Assembly (NCBI GenBank): GCA_026003175.1
Contig: BPGT01000003.1
Location: 62,001 to 126,000 of the forward strand
Reading direction: 5' to 3'
Origin: Armatimonadota bacterium
GTDB lineage: Bacteria > Armatimonadota > HRBIN16
Length of the DNA: 64,000 nt
How positions within the stretch are numbered: the first letter of the stretch is position 1; every line of letters starts with the position of its first letter. The position numbers and the translations under genes were made by a program. Below, one piece after another: positions 7,957 to 37,582 of this stretch. Below the pieces are notes generated by a model. That model was not told the DNA's origin and did not search any database. It saw only the letters and a list, made by a program, of their open reading frames with translations.

Positions 7957-8895
7957 TCAAGTGTGTTCGCTCCGCAGTCGCTCCAGTATCTGCCGCGCCG
8001 TCTCTTCAGCGCCTTGCGAAGCGTCTATCCATTCGATCTGCTTGTCGGCGCGGAACCATGTTAATTGACGCTTGGCGAAGCGCCGAGTTTCACGTTGTAT
8101 CAGCGCTATCGCCTCTTGCAATTCCAGTTTACCCTGAACGACCTGCGCCAGCTCCGCATACCCCAGCGACCGCATAGCGGGCAGGTTGGGGCTGTAACCA
8201 GCTTCCAGCAACCGACGCACTTCCTCCTGCCAGCCCTGTGCTATCATTCGCTCCACGCGCTCGTTGATACGCCGGTACAGAAGCGCACGCGGCATGGTCA
8301 ACCCAAACCGGCGCGCTCTACCGACCTCTGGAGGAGGCTGGCTTCGTTGCCACTCTGAAATCGGTCGTCCGGTGAGGTGATACACCTCCAGAGCGCGGAT
8401 GATACGTACCGCGTCGTTAGGGTGGATACGTGACGCCGCCTGAGGGTCTACCTCCTGCAGTCGCACGTGTAACGTTGCGCTACCCAGCCTCTTTGCGTCC
8501 TGCCATAATTGTTGGCGCAGTGCCTCGTTTGCAGCAGCGGGCGGGATATGGAACCCATCCAGCAACGCCTTCACATACAACCCAGTGCCCCCCACCACCA
8601 TTGGCAGTGCCCCACGCTGCCGAATCTGCCGAATTGCCTCCAGTGCCATCTGCTGAAACCTTGCAACACTGAAGGGCTCGTCGGGGTTGCAGACATCGAT
8701 GAGGTGGAAGCGCACGCGCTGCTGTTGCTCTGGCGTGGGCTTGGCAGTGCCGATATCCATACCCCGATACACCGCCATGCAGTCCGCGGAGATAATCTCT
8801 CCACCCAGTGCCTCCGCCAGCAAGATGCCCACCTCGGTCTTGCCGGTCGCGGTAGGACCCACTATCGCCAGAACGTCAGGCAGGAACTCTTTCAT
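7957..8895 (-). CDS. miaA: tRNA dimethylallyltransferase
   Basis: Transfers a dimethylallyl group to A37 of tRNAs that read UNN codons. 312 residues from the ATG at 8895. The reading frame stays open far upstream to 9531, but that extension has no homology and crosses a good promoter, so I reject it. Walker A is GPTATGKT (13-20); the DCMAVYRGMDIGTAKP, GGTGLY and RRFAKRQLTWFR segments are typical MiaA motifs. First gene of miaA-hfq-dapF-dapL. Confidence 0.96.
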   Translation of the reverse strand: MKEFLPDVLAIVGPTATGKTEVGILLAEALGGEIISADCMAVYRGMDIGTAKPTPEQQQRVRFHLIDVCNPDEPFSVARFQQMALEAIRQIRQRGALPMVVGGTGLYVKALLDGFHIPPAAANEALRQQLWQDAKRLGSATLHVRLQEVDPQAASRIHPNDAVRIIRALEVYHLTGRPISEWQRSQPPPEVGRARRFGLTMPRALLYRRINERVERMIAQGWQEEVRRLLEAGYSPNLPAMRSLGYAELAQVVQGKLELQEAIALIQRETRRFAKRQLTWFRADKQIEWIDASQGAEETARQILERLRSEHT

Positions 8896-9231
8896 TGGCT
8901 CTGCGCTTCTGAGAGTGTGGCTGTTGCGCACGCCCTTGCAACTTGACAAGGTACATAGCATCTGCGCAACCCAGTATACCACAAGCACGGGGTAACCTGC
9001 AAGATGAGCAACGTCGTACCTCCTGACCCACGTTATATCGTATTCTCCGCGTGCAGGGTGGCCCATGTGCTTTGTCAACACCTTCAGGTTGCTTACAAGA
9101 CATTGGTAGTGTGTTGCCGCGCAAGTTGACAATTTGCTTATGGCGTGATACGATTCAACATGGATAGCACCACCTGCTGATACTTCTTTCTCCAACCGCG
9201 ATTCGTAAGCTGCGAGAGGAGGGTGGTCACC
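8896..9231. promoter_or_regulatory. divergent intergenic region with promoters for miaA and the PII-like gene
   Basis: 336 bases with no gene. Minus strand: TTGCAG, 18 bases, TATACT (8973-9002) reads towards miaA. Plus strand: TTGACA, 17 bases, TACGAT (9126-9154) reads towards the PII-like gene, which has GAGGAGGG before its ATG at 9232. Nothing else recognisable was seen between the two promoters. Confidence 0.6.
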
Positions 9232-9528
9232 ATGAAGATGCTCATGATTGTCTGCGAGACGGGCATCGACTACCGCGTGGTCAAGGTGCTCGACGAAGTG
9301 CATGTACCGGGCTATACCCGCTATTCTGGGGTATCCGGCGTCGGGGAAACGGGTAGAAGATTGGGTTCGCCTATCATGCCCGGACAGAACACCGTCTTCC
9401 TGAGCGTCATGCCAGATGAGATGGCGCAGCAGGTTACCGAGAAGCTCAAGCAACTGGTTGACAGCTTTGAGGAACGACGCAAACCTGCTCTTCGCGTGTT
9501 CGCCATGCCTGCAGAAATCATGTTGTGA
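9232..9528 (+). CDS. small PII-like / ferredoxin-fold regulatory protein
   Basis: 98 residues from the ATG at 9232 (GAGGAGGG 8 bases upstream; the GTG at 9223 falls in that ribosome site and is not used). The pattern of a conserved first strand (MLMIVCETG), a central Gly-rich loop (GVSGVGETGRRLGSPIMPGQN) and a second strand-helix unit fits the PII/CutA-like fold. Such proteins bind nucleotides or metals and act as sensors. Here the T-loop residues of classical GlnB are not recognisable, so the signal is unknown. It has its own promoter and a strong terminator, so it is monocistronic. Confidence 0.55.
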   Translation: MKMLMIVCETGIDYRVVKVLDEVHVPGYTRYSGVSGVGETGRRLGSPIMPGQNTVFLSVMPDEMAQQVTEKLKQLVDSFEERRKPALRVFAMPAEIML

Positions 9529-9547
9529 CACCTGCTGAGTTAGCTAG

Positions 9548-9581
9548 GCGGCTCTTCCACAAGCAGGAAGAGCCGCTTTTT
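9548..9581 (+). terminator. rho-independent terminator after the PII-like gene
   Basis: GCGGCTCTTCC and GGAAGAGCCGC form a perfect 11-bp stem with a 7-base loop, directly followed by TTTTT. It starts 20 bases after the stop of the preceding gene. Confidence 0.93.
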
Positions 9582-9612
9582 GCATGGAATTTGATAAAAA
9601 GGAGGGGGCAGT

Positions 9613-9966
9613 ATGAAGGTCATTCCATCAGCGCAAATGGCGTTTCAACCGGTGACCACAGAAGGAGCCTGTGGAGCGTACATCAAGGAGCTCATTACCG
9701 ACCGCGATGGCGCACCAACCTTTGCCATGCGCCTGTTTGAAATCGCCCCGGGCGGGAACACCCCACTGCACCAACACCCATGGGAACATGAGGTGTTCAT
9801 CCTAAGCGGGCAGGGCGAACTACGTGGCCAAAACCAAAGCCACCCGTTCCGGGAAGGCGATGCGGTGTTCGTACCGCCTGATGAACTGCATACCTTTGTC
9901 AATACCGGCGAGCAACCCCTGCGGTTGCTGTGCATGATTCCGGTCCAACAACCTTGCTGCCGGTAG
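9613..9966 (+). CDS. small single-domain cupin
   Basis: 117 residues, one cupin barrel. Motif 1 is HQHPWEHEVFILSGQGEL with the metal-type His-x-His...Glu...His set; motif 2 (GDAVFVPPDELHTF) gives the fourth His. The ribosome site AAAAGGAGGGG precedes the ATG. The last residues (PVQQPCCR) contain a Cys pair. Function is not known; such stand-alone cupins are often metal-dependent isomerases, oxygenases or sugar binders. The deacetylase-family gene starts 17 bases later, so the two probably form one transcript. Confidence 0.8.
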   Translation: MKVIPSAQMAFQPVTTEGACGAYIKELITDRDGAPTFAMRLFEIAPGGNTPLHQHPWEHEVFILSGQGELRGQNQSHPFREGDAVFVPPDELHTFVNTGEQPLRLLCMIPVQQPCCR

Positions 9967-9982
9967 CATAAGGAGGGTAAAA

Positions 9983-10864
9983 ATGGCACAAGAGGTCTCA
10001 CTTGCAGTCAAACTGGGTTTTAAGCCGACCGATAAGGTACTTATCGTCAACGCTGATGATGTGGGCATGAGCTACGCTGCCAACCAGGCGACCATTCAGG
10101 GGATGGAGAAGGGGTTAATCACCGCCGGTTCTATTATGGTTCCCTGCCCGTGGTTCCTGCAAATCGCCGAATACGCCCGCACTCACCCCAAGGCAGATTT
10201 CGGCATCCACCTCACCCACACCAGCGAATGGAAATACTACCGCTGGGGACCCGTCGGTGACCGGTGTAAATTGAAGGGGCTGATTGATCCGCAGGGTTAT
10301 ATGTGGAGTGATGTGCCTGAGGTTTATGCTCACGCCACCCCCGAGCAAGCAATGATTGAGGCGCGTGCGCAGATAAAGATGGCAATGGATAACGGCGTCG
10401 ATATCACCCACCTCGATTCGCACATGGGAACCCTGCAGTACAGCGATAAGTACTTCTACGAGGTATATGTGCCGCTGGCAAAGGAGTTCAACCTACCGGT
10501 GCGCATGGGTTCGCAAGAGCTGCTGGCGCAGTTCGGCTATCCTGATATGCGTCAAAAGGTGCTGGAACAGGGTATCCTGTTCCCGGATTACCTGATACAC
10601 GGCGGGCGCAAACCGGGCGAAAGCGTAACCCAGTACTGGAAGCGCATGTTGCGCGAGCTCAAACCGGGCGTTACCGAACTGTACATCCACCCTGCGCTAC
10701 CCACCGAAGAGATGCAGCACATCGCCGGCTCATGGAAAGACCGCGCCGAGGAGTTTCGCCTGTTTACCACCGACGCAGAGATACGCCGTATCCTCAAAGA
10801 GCAGGACGTGAAGCTCATCGGTTGGCGCGTGATTCGCGACCTGCAACGGAAGGAAAAGCGATAG
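9983..10864 (+). CDS. ChbG/HpnK (YdjC-like) family carbohydrate deacetylase
   Basis: 293 residues. VLIVNADDVGMS carries the paired Asp residues, FGIHLTHTSEW the first metal His and THLDSHMG the Asp-x-His set of the YdjC-like TIM barrel. Members remove N-acetyl groups from chito-oligosaccharides (ChbG) or hopanoid precursors (HpnK). The substrate here is not evident. RBS AAGGAGG is close to the ATG at 9983. It sits behind the cupin gene and ends at a shared hairpin with murJ. Confidence 0.88.
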   Translation: MAQEVSLAVKLGFKPTDKVLIVNADDVGMSYAANQATIQGMEKGLITAGSIMVPCPWFLQIAEYARTHPKADFGIHLTHTSEWKYYRWGPVGDRCKLKGLIDPQGYMWSDVPEVYAHATPEQAMIEARAQIKMAMDNGVDITHLDSHMGTLQYSDKYFYEVYVPLAKEFNLPVRMGSQELLAQFGYPDMRQKVLEQGILFPDYLIHGGRKPGESVTQYWKRMLRELKPGVTELYIHPALPTEEMQHIAGSWKDRAEEFRLFTTDAEIRRILKEQDVKLIGWRVIRDLQRKEKR

Positions 10865-10879
10865 GCAACATCACCCCAC

Positions 10880-10905
10880 CCCCCTGCTCCACTGGGAGCA
10901 GGGGG
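10880..10905. terminator. bidirectional hairpin between convergent deacetylase and murJ genes
   Basis: An 11-bp perfect stem, CCCCCTGCTCC with GGAGCAGGGGG, around a four-base loop. It lies 15 bases after the deacetylase stop and 6 bases before the murJ stop on the other strand. There is no T-run on either side. Confidence 0.6.
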
Positions 10906-10910
10906 AGACA

Positions 10911-12476
10911 TCAGCTGCCCTTTCTCCGTAACGCCTTTAGCGCAGTGGCCATCTCCTCGGCACGCAGCAGCCTGGCTATCAACAGATACACCCCTCCACC
11001 CACCAGCAACACCAGCGCAATCGCCAGCAGAGACACCAGCTTGGGATGCAGCCCTGCTCCATGAAGTAATGCCGTAAGCGACATGCGCAACGCATAGCCT
11101 ACCGCCCCGCTGACTCCAGATGCCAGCACTATCCTCGCAAAGGGCAGCCCCAGCTGTCCAATCGGTATCTGCACCTTGTGCCTCAGGGCGTACAGCATCC
11201 ACAGAACATGCAATATCGCCGCAAGGGAACCCGCCAGCGCAAGCCCCTTATGCGCCAGCGGAGCCATCAACCACCAGTTGAGCGGCACGAACACCAGCGT
11301 GGTCAGCGTGCCGATGACCACCGGCGTTACGGTATCCTGCACTGCGTAAAAAGCACGGTTCAGGATCGCTTGACTGGAGAAGGCAAACAGACCGATGCAG
11401 TAGAATACCAGCGCCTCGGCGGTAATGCGCGTATCGTACGCGGTAAACTTCCTGTATTGCAACAAGATGGAAACGATATCGGTAGACAACACCATCATCA
11501 ACACCGAAATGGGCACGGTGAGGAACCACAGTGCCCGCAAGCCCTGCAATAGCGTGCGACGGAAGGCTTCCATATCGCCGCGCGCTGCCTGTGCGCTGAG
11601 CGTGGGGAACACCGCGATACTGATAGCCTGTGCGAAGATGCCCAAAGGCGCTTGCATCTGCTTGTTAGCGTTGTCTAGCGCGGAGACCGCCCCGGGAGGT
11701 AACAACGAAGCGAATGCGCGGTTAATCAACACGAACACCTGTGGTAGCGATAGCCCCAGTATCACCGGTAGTACCAGCTTGCCCACCTTCACCACGCCCG
11801 GATGCCTGAGGTGCAGGCTAAAACGATAACGCACTCCCACCCGACGCAGAAAAACCATTTGCAGCAGTAAATTGCCCACTATCGCGCCCACCAGCGCACC
11901 CCACGACAGTCCGGCAACCCCCAGACGTCCTCCCAACAACCAGCCGCCCGCGATGATGCCTAGGTTGTAGATGATGGGTCCCAGTGCAGGAACAAGGAAG
12001 TGCCCGCGCACGTACAGAGTAGCCATCATCAGCCCGCCCAGAAAGAAGCATATCTGCGCAGGCAGCACAATGCGCGTGAGCGCAGCGGTCATATCTAGCT
12101 GCCAGGGCTGGAAACCGGGTGCCACCAGTGGAACCAGCTGGCGGGCAAATATCTCTCCGATGAGCACAAAGCCTGCTACCACCAGCGTCATCAAGGTAGC
12201 AACCACCGAGAAGACCTTCCATGCCTCCTCTTCCTCTCCACGCGTGAGATATTCGGTGAACACCGGCACAAAGGAGGAGGAAAGCGCACCCCCGGCAATG
12301 AGGAAGAAAAGCAAATCGGGAATGGAAAACGCTGCCCGATACACATCGGTATAGGCGTTTTGACCGAACCAGGCGGCAATAGCAGTGTCCCGTAATTGCC
12401 CCAACACGCGGCTGATAAAAATCGCCGCCATCATCACCACCGCGGCGCGGGCAACCCTGTGTGTCTCCTGAGTCAT
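10911..12476 (-). CDS. murJ: lipid II flippase MurJ (MviN)
   Basis: Polytopic inner-membrane protein of the MOP/MVF family, 521 residues with about 14 hydrophobic segments, which moves the peptidoglycan precursor lipid II across the membrane. The opening (FISRVLGQLRDTAIAAWFG), the GGALSSSFVPVF stretch and the central NRAFYAVQDT segment are characteristic of MurJ. It has its own unit, convergent with the deacetylase gene; its upstream side carries a 186-bp mobile element 48 bases from the start. Confidence 0.95.
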   Translation of the reverse strand: MTQETHRVARAAVVMMAAIFISRVLGQLRDTAIAAWFGQNAYTDVYRAAFSIPDLLFFLIAGGALSSSFVPVFTEYLTRGEEEEAWKVFSVVATLMTLVVAGFVLIGEIFARQLVPLVAPGFQPWQLDMTAALTRIVLPAQICFFLGGLMMATLYVRGHFLVPALGPIIYNLGIIAGGWLLGGRLGVAGLSWGALVGAIVGNLLLQMVFLRRVGVRYRFSLHLRHPGVVKVGKLVLPVILGLSLPQVFVLINRAFASLLPPGAVSALDNANKQMQAPLGIFAQAISIAVFPTLSAQAARGDMEAFRRTLLQGLRALWFLTVPISVLMMVLSTDIVSILLQYRKFTAYDTRITAEALVFYCIGLFAFSSQAILNRAFYAVQDTVTPVVIGTLTTLVFVPLNWWLMAPLAHKGLALAGSLAAILHVLWMLYALRHKVQIPIGQLGLPFARIVLASGVSGAVGYALRMSLTALLHGAGLHPKLVSLLAIALVLLVGGGVYLLIARLLRAEEMATALKALRRKGS

Positions 12477-32622: not shown

Positions 32623-32675
32623 GGAGCTTGTCGGTGAAAAAGGGGCGTGGCTTGAGCCGTGCAAGGGGGTAGCCT

Positions 32676-32767
32676 GCGTGCAGTCGGCATGTAAAAAAAG
32701 CCCGAAGCCGGAAGAACACCCGTAAGTCGGGACGAGTCTCACCAGTCGGCTGCACGCTTTGTTAGTC
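32676..32767 (-). other. attC-like site 4 (after the SnoaL gene)
   Basis: On the minus strand, directly after the SnoaL stop, GACTAACAAAGCGTGCAGCC resembles the left half of an integron attC (core RYYYAAC). GTCGGCTGCACGC (32745-32757) pairs with GCGTGCAGTCGGC (32676-32688) as a near-perfect 13-bp inverted repeat. The distal core (GTTRRRY) is not recognisable. It could alternatively be a plain terminator stem. Confidence 0.4.
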
Positions 32768-32801
32768 CGCAAACTCATCGCGACGCCATTTGGTGTTTGA
32801 T

Positions 32802-33209
32802 TCACTCGGCGACGCCAAGTTGCCGCATCATGCCAAACTGATCGAACTGCGCGTGCAATGCAGTAACCCGGCCATCGGCTATATGAAGAATGGCAATTGC
32901 TTCAACTTCAATGGACTTCCCCGAAGGTGGAATGCCCATAAACAAGCTAAGATGTGTGCCGCGCAAGGTGAACCGAACTACTGCTGTGGCATCGTCTGCG
33001 ATGATCTCCTCAACCGTATGGTGCAAGTCTGGGAAGCCTGCATAGAAAGCGCTGGCGAATCCCTGATGGTCGGATAAGGTCATGGAGGGATTACTCCCAA
33101 TCCGAGCGACATAATCCGATGCGCATAGATCGGCGTCAGGCCCGCCTCTCAAACGATCTTGCGCCTCAAAGAATCGACGGCCGATGTCTCTATTCGTGTC
33201 TGTCAACAT
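32802..33209 (-). CDS. SnoaL-like / ester cyclase fold protein
   Basis: 135 residues from the ATG at 33209 (AAAGGAG upstream; the frame is open to 33260). Single cone-shaped alpha+beta domain of the NTF2-like SnoaL family: YAGFPDLHHTVEEIIADDATAV and VEAIAILHIADGRVTALHAQFD contain the usual His/Asp pocket residues (quoted only as landmarks). Members are small cyclases, isomerases or of unknown role. It shares a cassette with the cupin gene upstream. Confidence 0.8.
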   Translation of the reverse strand: MLTDTNRDIGRRFFEAQDRLRGGPDADLCASDYVARIGSNPSMTLSDHQGFASAFYAGFPDLHHTVEEIIADDATAVVRFTLRGTHLSLFMGIPPSGKSIEVEAIAILHIADGRVTALHAQFDQFGMMRQLGVAE

Positions 33210-33267
33210 GCTGGTTTTCTCCTTTATTAGTAAACTGATTTGATTGTGTTTGAGAGCCATATCTCCC

Positions 33268-33636
33268 TCATCCTTGTTGCTTCACGGCGTCTGCAAGCTC
33301 GATCAATACATTCGGTTCGTCACCGACAACCCAAGCGTCGTGTCCAGGTTGTATGATCGCCACATCCCCTGGACCGAATTCCATCTCGGTACCGTCATCC
33401 ATGCGGATTCGTTGGCGTCCCGCGAGAAAGATCTTCACGTGGAATCGCTGGCAGCTTTCGCCACCCAAGACGGGCTTGACATGCTTCGACCACTGCCAGC
33501 CAGGCTCCAGTATCTCGCGGTAGAATGTCAGACCGTTGATAGTGACGACATCGATGCGACCCTTCTCAAAGGGTCGCCGGGTTTCGTCAGGCGAGTCGAA
33601 GCTCTTTCCCGTAATGCTCTCGAACTTGTCGGACAT
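33268..33636 (-). CDS. cupin-domain protein of the cassette-like island
   Basis: 122 residues. Motif FHVKIFLAGRQRIRMDDGTE and GPGDVAIIQPGHDAWVVGDE form one cupin barrel, but the usual metal His cluster is reduced (one His in each motif). AAAAGGAGG precedes the ATG at 33636. No attC-like site separates it from the SnoaL gene, so the two may form one two-gene unit. Function unknown. Confidence 0.75.
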   Translation of the reverse strand: MSDKFESITGKSFDSPDETRRPFEKGRIDVVTINGLTFYREILEPGWQWSKHVKPVLGGESCQRFHVKIFLAGRQRIRMDDGTEMEFGPGDVAIIQPGHDAWVVGDEPNVLIELADAVKQQG

Positions 33637-33671
33637 GATTTACCTCCTTTTGCTTTGTTCACAAGCGAACG

Positions 33672-33743
33672 GGCTAACGTCAAAGCTCACCTGCCACTAT
33701 GGGGCGCAGCGGAAGTGAGGTCAGGTGTAGCGATTTATTGGGC
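33672..33743 (-). other. attC-like site 3 (methyltransferase / cupin boundary)
   Basis: 72 bases. On the minus strand it begins GCCCAATAAATCGCT with the methyltransferase stop TAA inside it, as is common for attC sites, and ends GCTTTGACGTTAGCC (core GTTRRRY with one misfit). ACCTG/CAGGT and CACT/AGTG arms pair in the middle. This is the most complete of the four candidate sites. Confidence 0.5.
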
Positions 33744-34355
33744 TACCTTTTTAAAAAGACAATATAGATACATTTGCTCCACTCCTCCCGGTGTGACATG
33801 TAATTCTTTGGACTTCTTCTTAAGCACAAATGCTGATCCTAAGATTCTTTCAAGTTCTTCAGGTGAGTATCGTTGCACAGGTAGACCGCTGCATTTGGGA
33901 GGGGCTTCCACCGAAAAGGTAGCCATAATCACATGGCCTCCAGGTCTCAATGCCTTTGAAAGATTCCCTACATATCGTTGTTGCTGTTCTGAAGAAGTCA
34001 AAAAGTGAAAAACTGCCCGATCGTGCCATAGATCGTAATGATGGACTGGGAGATCCATAGAAGTTATATCGCCTTCTATCCAAGTAACCAGTGTCGCTCT
34101 TTCGCCCAACCGTTTCTTTGTCAATGCCAAAGCTGTCTTGGACAGATCAATCACAGTTATCGAGCTATAGCCGATCTCCACTAGGTCATCAACTAGCGTT
34201 GAGGCACCGCCGCCGACATCAATGATATTCGCATCTTTGCCCAAAGAGAGTTCACCTATCCAATTCACGGAAGTCTCCAAATGAGGTTTGTACCAGCTGA
34301 CTTGATCCGGCTGATTTGTTGAGTAAATCTTTTCCCAATGAGCTCGTTGGGACAT
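33735..34355 (-). CDS. class I SAM-dependent methyltransferase
   Basis: 206 residues from the ATG at 34355 (AAAGGAGA upstream). The opening HWEKIYSTNQPDQVSWYKPH and motif I IIDVGGGAS (about 44-52), followed by acidic VIDLS and WHDRAVFHFL, fit the small cytoplasmic methyltransferases often annotated as tellurite-resistance TehB-like or thiopurine-like enzymes. Base composition is clearly more A/T-rich than the neighbours, a sign of separate origin. Substrate unknown. Confidence 0.85.
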   Translation of the reverse strand: MSQRAHWEKIYSTNQPDQVSWYKPHLETSVNWIGELSLGKDANIIDVGGGASTLVDDLVEIGYSSITVIDLSKTALALTKKRLGERATLVTWIEGDITSMDLPVHHYDLWHDRAVFHFLTSSEQQQRYVGNLSKALRPGGHVIMATFSVEAPPKCSGLPVQRYSPEELERILGSAFVLKKKSKELHVTPGGVEQMYLYCLFKKVAQ

Positions 34356-34372
34356 CCGCCATTCTCCTTTCA

Positions 34373-34484
34373 GCCTAACGTTCTGTTTCAGCGGCAGCGG
34401 CGGCACGGACAAGACACCTCCGCTCGCTGACGGCACAGACCCGGAGCGGCGTGTAGCCGCTGTCTGCCTGCAAACGGTACGGGA
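34373..34484 (-). other. attC-like site 2 (flavin oxidase / methyltransferase boundary)
   Basis: On the minus strand it ends GCCGCTGAAACAGAACGTTAGGC; the last seven bases GTTAGGC (34373-34379) are a perfect attC R' core. GCCGCTG can pair with CAGCGGC near 34455. The outer left core is degenerate, so this may be a decayed site. Confidence 0.4.
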
Positions 34485-34498
34485 CGCAGGATGTCCTC

Positions 34499-35878
34499 TC
34501 AGTCCGGTTTGATGTTCTGGTTCACGCGGAAGAAGTTGGTCGGATCGTACTTTTTCTTGATAGCCACCAGGCGGTCGTAGTTGTCGCCGTAGGTTGTCCG
34601 GACGCGCCCTTCCCCTTCTTCCATCATGAAATTCACGTACGTACCCCCCTGTGTATAGGGATGCACGGCTTCCCAGTAGCTCCTGGCCCACGCTGTGATC
34701 GCTTCCGCCTTGGCCGGGTCGGGGGCGATTCCCGCGATAACCATGGACCACGTCGCATCCCGGTAGTTCCAGGCTGTCTCATTTCGCCCCACACGATGAA
34801 CCGCGCCGTCTATGGGATACAGATGCATCAACGACAGCTCGCTCGGAGCCTCCGCAGTGTGCTCCAAATGCACGTCGAACACTGCATCGGGAAGCTCTTT
34901 GACAAAGTCACCCTTCCAGTACCACTGCATGCCCTGAGGCAGCAGCGGGTCGAACATGGTCTGCAGGGTCGGGAACGGCATGGGGCCCATCCAGTCCAGG
35001 ATGGGCGGAGGAAGCTCCTGGCGAATTGGTTTCACTGCATCTTCCGCCTTTTCCAGCGGCCCGCTGTAGCAAGAGATCAAAGCACAGATTTTCTTCCCCC
35101 AGAGCTCCTTGGGGAAAGGGTCGGTCGAAGGCATCGTCTTCAAACCAAAGAACGGACAAAGCTCGACCGGCGCCTGGGACAGAAACTCGCGGTACCACTG
35201 CATCACCCGGCGTGCGTCCTTTATCTCCCAGAAGACTGGCCCGGCATAGACTGTGCTCACGGGGTGAGCGCGATAAACGAAGCTCGTCACGACGCCAAAA
35301 TTCCCGCCGCCGCCGCGCAGACCCCAGAAGAGATCCTCATGTTGCGATGCACTGGCGGTCACAAAGCTGCCGTCGGCTAACACAACATCCGCCTCGATCA
35401 GGTTATCAACGGTCAGACCGTACTTGCGTGTGAGATAGCCGTGTCCGCCACCCAGCGTGAGCCCCGCAATACCGGTCGTTGAGACGATGCCGGCTGGCAC
35501 AGCCAGGTCAAAGGCATGACTGGCGTGATCCACGTCGCCTTGCGTGCAACCAGCTCCCACCCGCACAGTGCGGTTCCCCGGATCGACGCGCACCCCCTTC
35601 ATCAGGGAGAGATCAATCACCAGCCCGTCGTCGCAACTGCCCAGCCCGGCCCCGTTGTGACCGCCGCCGCGTATAGCCGTGAGAAGGTCATTCTCCTGAC
35701 CAAATCGCACGGTGGAGATCACATCGGCTACATCGGCACAACGAACGATCAGAAGCGGCCGCTTGTTGATCATGCCATTATACAGCTTGCGGGCTTGCTC
35801 GTAGTGCTTGTCGCTGCGCTGGATCAGTTCACCGCGCAGACTCGCCTTGAATTTCTCAATACTCGTTTTGTCCAACAT
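34499..35878 (-). CDS. FAD-linked oxidase (VAO / berberine-bridge type)
   Basis: 459 residues. The FAD-binding PCMH domain holds both covalent anchors: H74 in RGGGHNGAG (8-alpha-histidyl) and C111 in VGAGCTQGD (6-cysteinyl), so bicovalent flavinylation is predicted. The C-terminal BBE segment (YDRLVAIKKKYDPTNFFRVNQNI) is complete. No signal peptide. Such enzymes oxidise sugars, alkaloids or aromatic alcohols. It starts 12 bases after the monooxygenase gene, so the two are co-expressed. Confidence 0.9.
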   Translation of the reverse strand: MLDKTSIEKFKASLRGELIQRSDKHYEQARKLYNGMINKRPLLIVRCADVADVISTVRFGQENDLLTAIRGGGHNGAGLGSCDDGLVIDLSLMKGVRVDPGNRTVRVGAGCTQGDVDHASHAFDLAVPAGIVSTTGIAGLTLGGGHGYLTRKYGLTVDNLIEADVVLADGSFVTASASQHEDLFWGLRGGGGNFGVVTSFVYRAHPVSTVYAGPVFWEIKDARRVMQWYREFLSQAPVELCPFFGLKTMPSTDPFPKELWGKKICALISCYSGPLEKAEDAVKPIRQELPPPILDWMGPMPFPTLQTMFDPLLPQGMQWYWKGDFVKELPDAVFDVHLEHTAEAPSELSLMHLYPIDGAVHRVGRNETAWNYRDATWSMVIAGIAPDPAKAEAITAWARSYWEAVHPYTQGGTYVNFMMEEGEGRVRTTYGDNYDRLVAIKKKYDPTNFFRVNQNIKPD

Positions 35879-35890
35879 GGTGCTCTCCTT

Positions 35891-36208
35891 TCAGAACTGT
35901 TGTTGGTGCGCCTGGCGTTCCAGTTCGGACCCGGCAGGCCACCGGGAAATGAGGGTATGCAGCTCGTAGGCACGACGCTGCGGCATAATGTCAGATGGCA
36001 AGTTGGGGCGAACATGCTTGGCGAACCACTCTGCGGCGTCTTTTGACGACTCCCATACTTCCACGACACGCCAACCCCCATCGATTGGGTGGCCGAAGTG
36101 CATGATGAAACCAGGAGCCCCCCTGAGGGCACCTTCAAGAATCCGGATCGTCTGTTCGTATCCTTCCTTCGTCTGACCCGGGACGTCTGCAATAATCGCT
36201 ACAGCCAT
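35891..36208 (-). CDS. antibiotic-biosynthesis-monooxygenase (ABM) fold protein
   Basis: 105 residues, dimeric ferredoxin-like ABM fold: AIIADVPGQTKEGYEQTI, GAPGFIMHFG and WRVVEVWESSKDAAEWF are the strand-helix landmarks. Family members include quinol monooxygenases and heme-degrading enzymes, and many of unknown role. AAAGGAGAACC precedes the ATG. First gene of the minus-strand pair with the flavin oxidase. Confidence 0.8.
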   Translation of the reverse strand: MAVAIIADVPGQTKEGYEQTIRILEGALRGAPGFIMHFGHPIDGGWRVVEVWESSKDAAEWFAKHVRPNLPSDIMPQRRAYELHTLISRWPAGSELERQAHQQQF

Positions 36209-36269
36209 GCCTGGTTCTCCTTTCTGACTTATTCAGTGCCTACCGTCGCGTCACTCGGCAATCAGGGCT

Positions 36270-36363
36270 GCCCAACGTATCTTCTCTCCGCTGGCAAAGC
36301 CCACATGCCATCACACCTGTTACCAATGGCTGGCTGCACACTCTGTAGGGCGGCGTTTTGGGT
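36270..36363 (-). other. attC-like site 1 (upstream edge of the cassette-like island)
   Basis: The minus strand reads GCCAGCGGAGAGAAG then ATACGTTGGGC; GTTGGGC (36270-36276) is a perfect GTTRRRY core directly before the ABM unit. The partner half (near 36355, GTTTTGGGT on plus) is poor. The rest of 36297-36494 holds no gene and may be a decayed older cassette. Confidence 0.35.
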
Positions 36364-36503
36364 GTACTACCGAACTTTACTCATCGAAACAAGCAAATTA
36401 GAATCTGGGGCATGGAAAAAGCCATCCGCTCTTTCTCATCTTCTCCTACCGCTCACTAATGGTCAAAGTGTACCTCGTGTTTGCGCGTTTGTCAATGCAT
36501 TTT

Positions 36504-37516
36504 GGAGGGTGTTCAAAAAATCGGTTAGTATCGGGTATATCGATTCCATGAAACGACGATACCTACCACAAAGCAGACTCACTACCCTGTCGGTGAAGGT
36601 CATCTTCACCATCGTCCAACGCTTCTGCCAAATCCATCCTCTGCCCCCACGCCGCGGGCGACCCTACAAATACCCCGAAGCGCTCATCCTCACCCTCCTC
36701 TTGCTGGGAGTGCGCGAAAACGCCTCCTACCGACGCCTACTGTTCGCCCTCGCCCCAGAACTGCTGCCCGACCAACCCCTGCCTGCCTTAGGCACGCTCG
36801 CCTACCGCTTGCAGCATCTTGCAGACGAACGCCTGCACCAACTGCTCACTTGGCTTGCCCAGCAGGGCATCGCGTCAGAGACGCCGACCCGTGAGACGCC
36901 GTGTGTGTTTGTGGATGGCACGGGCGTGGGGTATGCCTCACCGTTTTTGGCGCAGTATTTGCGTGGGGCACAGGTACGTCAGCAGCGGTCGCATGTGAAG
37001 GTGGTGGCGTTGGGGTGTTGGCAGGGGGGTCGGGTGTGGGTGATGGGGTTATCGTGTGGGGGGGCATATGCGGATGAGGGGCGTCTGTTGTGGGAGTGGG
37101 TGGAGCGTCATGGGCTTGGTGGTTTGTCGTGTGGCACTTTATTAGTTGGGGACGGGTTGTATGGTTATCGGGCGCAGTTATTGGTTGCGTTGGAGCGTGC
37201 GGGTTGGTTGCCTGTGGCAGTGGTTCGGGATGGCGTGTGGCAGCAGGTGCGTGCGGATGCGCGGTTGCGTGCGCGTGCACGTGCGCAGACATATGGTTGG
37301 GCGTTGCGGGAGCGTTATCGGATAGAGCAGGTGTTTGGTAGTGTGAAGGGAGCTTATGGGAGTGTGTGGCGAGCGCGTTCGTGGGTGGTTGCACGGGTGT
37401 GGGTGTGGGGCATGTTTGTGTTGTGGAACATGGTGGGTGTGGTGCAGGTGGCTGGTAGCGGTTGTTTTGTGTGTTGGTGGTGGGTGTGGGGTCTATGCGA
37501 TTTTTCGAACACCCTC
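36504..37516 (+). mobile_element. insertion sequence, IS4/IS5-type DDE, with 9-bp target duplication
   Basis: About 1,013 bp. Left end GAGGGTGTTCAAAAAATCG, right end CGATTTTTCGAACACCCTC: 19-bp inverted repeats with one mismatch. The target ATGCATTTT is duplicated at 36495-36503 and 37517-37525, with one extra G at the left tip. It carries one transposase gene. The outer 10-14 bases of its ends are identical to those of the three 186-bp MITEs in this window, which also duplicate 9 bp. Confidence 0.92.
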
Positions 37517-37582
37517 ATGCATTTTTGCTTGATCGAAAAAAATTTTTACAGATTTATGGAAGCAGATGCAAGCCGAGCCTGA
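36548..37582 (+). CDS. DDE transposase
   Basis: 344 residues from the ATG at 36548; the frame is open upstream outside the element but that part is not real. The catalytic triad is D123 (VFVDGTGVG), D202 (LLVGDGLYGY) and E260 (RYRIEQVFGSVKG), as in IS4/IS5-type RNase-H-fold enzymes. The gene has no stop inside the element: it reads through the right inverted repeat (from residue about 318) and borrows a TGA at 37580 in the host flank, giving 20-odd foreign residues. Codon third positions switch from C-rich to G/T-rich near residue 115. Confidence 0.9.
   Translation: MKRRYLPQSRLTTLSVKVIFTIVQRFCQIHPLPPRRGRPYKYPEALILTLLLLGVRENASYRRLLFALAPELLPDQPLPALGTLAYRLQHLADERLHQLLTWLAQQGIASETPTRETPCVFVDGTGVGYASPFLAQYLRGAQVRQQRSHVKVVALGCWQGGRVWVMGLSCGGAYADEGRLLWEWVERHGLGGLSCGTLLVGDGLYGYRAQLLVALERAGWLPVAVVRDGVWQQVRADARLRARARAQTYGWALRERYRIEQVFGSVKGAYGSVWRARSWVVARVWVWGMFVLWNMVGVVQVAGSGCFVCWWWVWGLCDFSNTLMHFCLIEKNFYRFMEADASRA

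What the first reader, a model, noticed from the sequence alone, without database searches (positions are those of the whole stretch)
32676..36363. Integron-like gene-cassette array without an integrase
Five minus-strand genes of typical cassette cargo (SnoaL, cupin, methyltransferase, flavin oxidase, ABM) form three units. Each unit is followed by a segment with attC core motifs: GTTGGGC (36270), GTTAGGC (34373), a 72-bp site with both halves (33672-33743, methyltransferase TAA inside it), and GACTAAC plus a 13-bp inverted repeat (32676-32767). Cassette starts would be TTGGGC, TTAGGC and TTAGCC, as attC recombination predicts. The units differ in base composition. Integron cassettes in this kind of lineage would be new to me. 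Some cores are degenerate, so the array may be old.
Basis: partly seen in the sequence, partly recalled or inferred. Interest (0 to 1): 0.85.

Follow-up and report, generated by a model that had tools for sequence, protein, structure and literature searches.

The report
Decayed integron cassette array, no integrase
A hot-spring bacterium of the phylum Armatimonadota carries a decayed row of mobile "gene cassettes" inserted in its chromosome without the enzyme that normally moves them; a sister species carries related cassettes at another place, so such gene trading reaches a group from which I found no published report of it.

Summary

An attC covariance model trained without any sequence from this genus finds window 33672-33743(-) at 39.5 bits, the only hit in 1.66 Mb of this genome. 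Two other sites survive as half-sites (5' half at 32767, 3' half at 34373), each expected under 0.001 times by chance where it lies. The site at 36270 has no support beyond its 7-mer.

The 32.6-37.6 kb block is a species-specific insertion: its flanking genes are adjacent in sister species. The genome has no integron integrase, so this is a degenerate CALIN-like array.

Sister species HRbin16 carries an unmistakable five-attC CALIN at a different locus, with related cupin and ABM cassettes. Each cupin is closer to one from another phylum than to its sister's, which suggests separate captures. The cupin also lies in an attC array of HRbin33 that has a broken intI.

Ten of 291 Armatimonadota genomes encode IntI and 29 carry attC sites; a 2021 list of integron-bearing phyla omits Armatimonadota.

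It is a known kind of element in a lineage with no report that I found. How the array arrived is inferred.

The parts
32676..32767 (-). Remnant attC of the cupin-SnoaL unit: intact 5' half (R'' GACTAAC, L'' TGCAGCCGAC) and paired outer stem, but no recognisable R'; lies at the array/chromosome junction
   Evidence: 5' half-site rank 1 of 128,000 positions; 1 equal or better in 3.2 million background positions; whole site only 6.9 bits with the covariance model
32802..33260 (-). SnoaL-like protein gene, second gene of the cupin-SnoaL cassette
   Evidence: PF07366 E 9e-25
33268..33636 (-). Cupin-fold protein gene, first gene of the cassette
   Evidence: 89% aa identical to HRbin33, 85% to HRbin16; annotated homologues are cupins
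33672..33743 (-). attC site of the methyltransferase cassette, full length, with weakened stem; methyltransferase stop codon lies inside it
   Evidence: covariance model R1, 39.5 bits, E 6.4e-7; only hit in 1.66 Mb of own genome
33735..34355 (-). Class I SAM methyltransferase gene, single-gene low-GC cassette
   Evidence: PF08241 E 8e-13; 45% GC
34373..34500 (-). Decayed attC of the ABM-FAD unit: 3' half intact (GCCGCTGAAACAGAACGTTAGGC), R'' decayed; start approximate
   Evidence: 3' half-site rank 3 of 128,000; 4 equal or better in 3.2 million
34499..35878 (-). FAD-dependent berberine-bridge-type oxidase gene
   Evidence: PF01565, PF08031
35891..36208 (-). ABM-like small protein gene, first gene of the ABM-FAD unit
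   Evidence: sub-threshold ABM hit; 76% identical, frame-broken homologue in the HRbin16 array
36270..36351 (-). Proposed first recombination site (GCCCTAC ... GTTGGGC); not supported statistically
   Evidence: no covariance-model hit; half-site scores at chance
36467..36495 (-). Promoter-like TTGACA-17-TACACT reading into the array, just outside the IS
   Evidence: consensus scan, 10 of 12; shuffles give as many promoter-like sites, so unproven
36504..37517 (+). IS5-family-like insertion sequence with about 9-bp target duplication (ATGCATTTT), inserted at the upstream end of the block; transposase start codon at 36548
   Evidence: multi-copy in this genome; PF01609 and NF033579; ends
32631..37581 (.). 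Species-specific insertion (array plus IS) between a VIT/VWA protein gene and an NAD-epimerase gene; junctions not fixed to the base
   Evidence: flanks are contiguous in G003, G009 and G001, and about 670 bp apart with unrelated DNA in G004

Best explanation
The block is a degenerate integron cassette array without integrase (CALIN-like) in an Armatimonadota chromosome of the HRBIN16 genus. Shown: three units (ABM+FAD, methyltransferase, cupin+SnoaL), all in one direction, each followed by a whole or partial attC; no integron integrase in the genome; the block is inserted between genes that are adjacent in sister species; a sister species has a separate CALIN with related cassettes at another locus. 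Inferred: an integron integrase brought by a mobile integron, or by DNA from a hot-spring neighbour, acted in trans and placed circular cassettes into this chromosome at a non-attI (attG-like) site, or the array arrived as a piece of an imported integron. With no resident integrase the attC sites then decayed, and the genes persist as an operon-like block, perhaps read from the promoter-like sequence upstream.
For: attC hit with a genus-free model, 39.5 bits, unique in 1.66 Mb of the genome; negative control of 809 kb mostly actinobacterial DNA reaches only 15.6 bits; two further half-sites; sister HRbin16 contig with four significant attCs and one weak one, one after each cassette, plus a lone cassette with attC on contig C254; reciprocal empty sites; shared cupin and ABM; cupin DNA of G000 closest to HRbin33 (84.8%) and that of G003 closest to Meiothermus (85.7%), against 79.9% between the sisters, while the VIT flank is 83% and the epimerase side 86-88%; HRbin33 cupin in an attC array about 14 kb from a broken intI; no IntI over cut-off in this genus.
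Against: Only one of four sites is a full attC by score; IntegronFinder's default needs two. The best site folds no better than shuffles (z 0.14), so it is probably inactive. The 36270 site is unsupported. The 32767 half-site needs a one-base shorter spacer, allowed after seeing it although one training site has the same. Junctions are not resolved, so the route of arrival is not shown. The genus genomes are mostly drafts.
Confidence: 0.9

Rival explanations
1. Ordinary horizontally acquired gene cluster; the attC-like motifs are chance.
For: 7-mer cores are common; the cupin plus SnoaL/NTF2-like pair also occurs in Chloroflexi and Thermus without attC.
Against: 39.5-bit full site and further top-ranked half-sites, all at cassette boundaries in one orientation; the sister array has the same gene families between clear attCs.
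Confidence: 0.04
2. Remnant of an integron that was vertically inherited at this locus and lost its integrase here.
For: IntI and attC occur in other families of the phylum.
Against: The locus lacks an array in four sister species and none of the 10 genus genomes has IntI over cut-off; the sister's array lies elsewhere.
Confidence: 0.05
3. The array was carried in by the neighbouring IS as a passenger, or by an IS-mediated rearrangement, rather than by integron recombination.
For: An IS with many near-identical copies in the genome borders the block.
Against: Only one IS copy borders the block and it has its own about 9-bp target duplication, so it looks like a later insertion; no such IS was seen in the stretch of the HRbin16 array that was read.
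Confidence: 0.12

Closest known systems
[quoted passage not shown] Cury et al. 2016, described in PMC8618304, PMC9024848, PMC12444791)
   Same: attC-separated cassettes, common orientation, no integrase nearby or in the genome
   Different: Only one attC is still full length; the genus has no integron integrase in the genomes held; Armatimonadota is not in the 2021 list of phyla with integrons (PMC8618304)
Cassettes inserted at attG sites (Loot et al. 2024, as cited in PMC12444791 and PMC12901181)
   Same: cassettes at a non-attI chromosomal locus; sister species have different insertion loci
   Different: junction not resolved to a G/TT site; no integrase seen; a natural case, not a laboratory assay
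HRbin33 integron remnant (Bacterium HR33)
   Same: carries the 89% identical cupin; one of its attCs is about 87% identical (counted by eye) to the HRbin16 cupin attC
   Different: still has a (frame-broken) intI and well-folded attCs

Membership tests
CALIN | at least two attC sites within about 4 kb of each other | tested here: inconclusive
   one full attC, E 6e-7, plus two significant half-sites; the HRbin16 array meets it with four significant sites
CALIN | no integron integrase next to it | tested here: met
   no TIGR02249 match over cut-off in the whole genome; the best matches are Xer-like with the middle part of the IntI profile unmatched
CALIN | genes between attCs in cassette format and orientation | tested here: met
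   five minus-strand genes in three units, each followed by a site
Complete integron | intI plus attI plus Pc promoter | tested here: not met
   no intI; attI not identifiable; a promoter-like sequence exists but shuffles give as many such matches
attG insertion | junctions at a G/TT-type site on both sides | tested here: inconclusive
   sister empty sites locate the insertion within tens of bases only
Functional attC | bottom strand folds into a stable hairpin with R and L stems | tested here: not met
   -8.2 kcal/mol, z 0.14, against -26.9 and z -8.2 for an HRbin33 attC
Composite transposon | two flanking IS copies | tested here: not met
   one IS copy at one end

The most novel reading that the evidence does not exclude
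Integrase-less thermophilic Armatimonadota repeatedly receive cassettes from integrons of unrelated hot-spring neighbours (HRbin33, Deinococcota), inserted at scattered chromosomal sites: a natural case of off-target cassette seeding across phyla, with two sister species having captured the same cassette families independently.
Probability: 0.35. Interest if true: 0.65.

Novelty: new member of a known kind. Interest (0 to 1): 0.5.

Why it matters
It extends integron cassettes, and with the intI/attC survey complete integrons too, to Armatimonadota, a phylum missing from the 2021 list I read. It also gives paired natural empty and filled sites in sister species without integrase, where off-target cassette insertion can be studied. 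One cassette family (the cupin) can be followed across several phyla.

Tried and rejected
Rfam on the whole window: no match. Strict motif scan: no site in the window block, since all but one of the sites are degenerate. Whole-genome model search: its first look missed even the 39.5-bit site, so stretches making 1.66 Mb were fetched and scanned directly. 5'-half pattern search in the genus: at background. Methyltransferase in viral contigs: none; on plasmids only about 50% identical. Cupin tree: the close group is unresolved, so pairwise DNA identities were used. Fold energies of the window sites: the best site is no better than shuffles. Chance, ancestral-integron and composite-transposon readings were considered and judged weaker.

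Full report
What was claimed.

Lineage. The window lies in a 4.1-Mb, 7-contig genome, on a 488-kb contig. A sister genome, G003, is Bacterium HR16 (HRbin16): its 13,269-base contig 103 has the same length and content as the named record. HRBIN16 is placed in Armatimonadota (PMC11071339). The window genome is therefore an HRBIN16-genus Armatimonadota, a hot-spring lineage.

The attC test. I aligned 19 attC sites from class 1 integron plasmids, HRbin33 and one Armatimonadota genome outside the genus, with R and L stems set by hand, and built model R1. It contains nothing from this genus. Over the whole window, filters off, one match is significant: 33672-33743 minus, 39.5 bits, E 6.4e-7; the next is 13.3 bits. 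Over 1.66 Mb of the genome, 41%, it is still the only match. In 809 kb of mostly actinobacterial control DNA the best score is 15.6 bits.

The other sites. Decayed attCs may keep one half, so I scored halves separately. In 3.2 million background positions of the same genome the numbers equal or better are 1 (32767), 8 (33743), 4 (34373) and 4 (33672). The 36270 core has no half-site above chance.

The block is an insertion. DNA matching the flanks is contiguous in sisters. In G003 and G009 the matches to the VIT/VWA gene and the epimerase gene end about 90 bases apart, in G001 about 150, and in G004 about 670 with unrelated DNA. In the window they are 5 kb apart and hold the array plus an IS of a family with several near-identical copies in this genome. 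The IS has about 9 bases of target duplication and looks like a later arrival at the upstream end.

The sister array. HRbin16 contig 103 has, on one strand, cupin - attC - short unit - attC - another methyltransferase - attC - ABM (frame-broken) - attC - 232-aa protein - attC. Four sites score 54, 41, 38 and 32 bits; the fifth is weak at 14.7. This array sits between an M14-peptidase-like gene and TPR/HAD-like genes that are about 80 bases apart in the window's genome (gene names by inspection). The two species thus have arrays at different loci, each empty in the other. HRbin16 also has a lone NmrA-like gene with an attC.

Source of the cassettes. The cupin is 82-89% identical at the protein level in HRbin33, HRbin16, a Chloroflexi genome, Meiothermus luteus and one unplaced MAG, and 75% in an Elusimicrobia MAG. 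At DNA level the window cupin is closest to HRbin33 (84.8%) and the HRbin16 cupin to Meiothermus (85.7%), while the two sisters share only 79.9%; native DNA beside the window's block is 83% (VIT gene) and 86-88% (epimerase side) identical between the sisters. This favours separate captures, though a protein tree does not resolve the group. In HRbin33 the cupin lies downstream of four attCs and about 14 kb from a frame-broken intI. Meiothermus luteus has a full intI (465 bits) and an attC beside it, but its cupin is on another contig without a significant attC.

Integrase. No protein of the window's genome, nor of the nine sister genomes, passes the integron-integrase cut-off. In the phylum 10 of 291 genomes do, and attCs lie near most of these integrase loci (two of those attCs were training sites). 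R1 matches at E 0.001 or better occur in 29 of 291 genomes. The 2021 list of phyla with integrons (PMC8618304) does not include Armatimonadota, and searches of the held library gave no paper on integrons in it; papers outside that library were not checked.

How it likely works. CALINs are held to arise by off-target insertion by an IntI, loss of intI, or rearrangement (PMC8618304), and cassettes can enter genomes at attG sites (Loot et al. 2024 as cited in PMC12444791 and PMC12901181). Empty sister sites argue against loss of intI from an ancestral array at this locus. Off-target insertion, or import of an array fragment, remains. The last site keeps its 5' half and outer stem but no canonical R', which would fit a hybrid junction, but the junction is not resolved. 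The full site no longer folds better than shuffles (z 0.14, against -8.2 for an HRbin33 site), so the array is probably immobile now. A TTGACA-17-TACACT sequence reads into it, but the scan finds such sites as often in shuffles.

Verdict. A real, decayed, CALIN-like array: a known kind in a lineage for which I found no report, with a good natural pair of probably independent insertions.

Noticed in passing
G003:C103 (L063) 8657-11588: Sister species HRbin16 carries a five-attC, integrase-less array with a frame-broken ABM cassette, at a locus empty in the window's genome.
   Followed up: yes
G050 contigs 133, 142, 144, 158, 168, 194; G077:C132: Other Armatimonadota genomes hold long runs of similar-length 94-100-bp attC sites (12-15 matches listed), that is, large chromosomal integron-like arrays.
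   Followed up: no
L170, L172, L173 (other IS copies in G000): In three of the four other IS copies read, a roughly 190-bp element with the same terminal repeats lies directly beside the IS, separated by a short repeated target: tandem MITE plus IS insertions.
   Followed up: no
L063 8409-8479: A 70-90-bp repeat found in many places in the genus lies just upstream of the HRbin16 array, in AT-rich sequence.
   Followed up: no
L163 4125-5000 (HRbin33): HRbin33 integron integrase is split between two frames, with attCs downstream.
   Followed up: partly
L265 8001-8744 and L078 6001-6777: The cupin is followed by, or fused in frame with, an NTF2/SnoaL-like gene in a Thermus plasmid and a Chloroflexi genome without attC, so the pair may be a functional unit.
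   Followed up: partly
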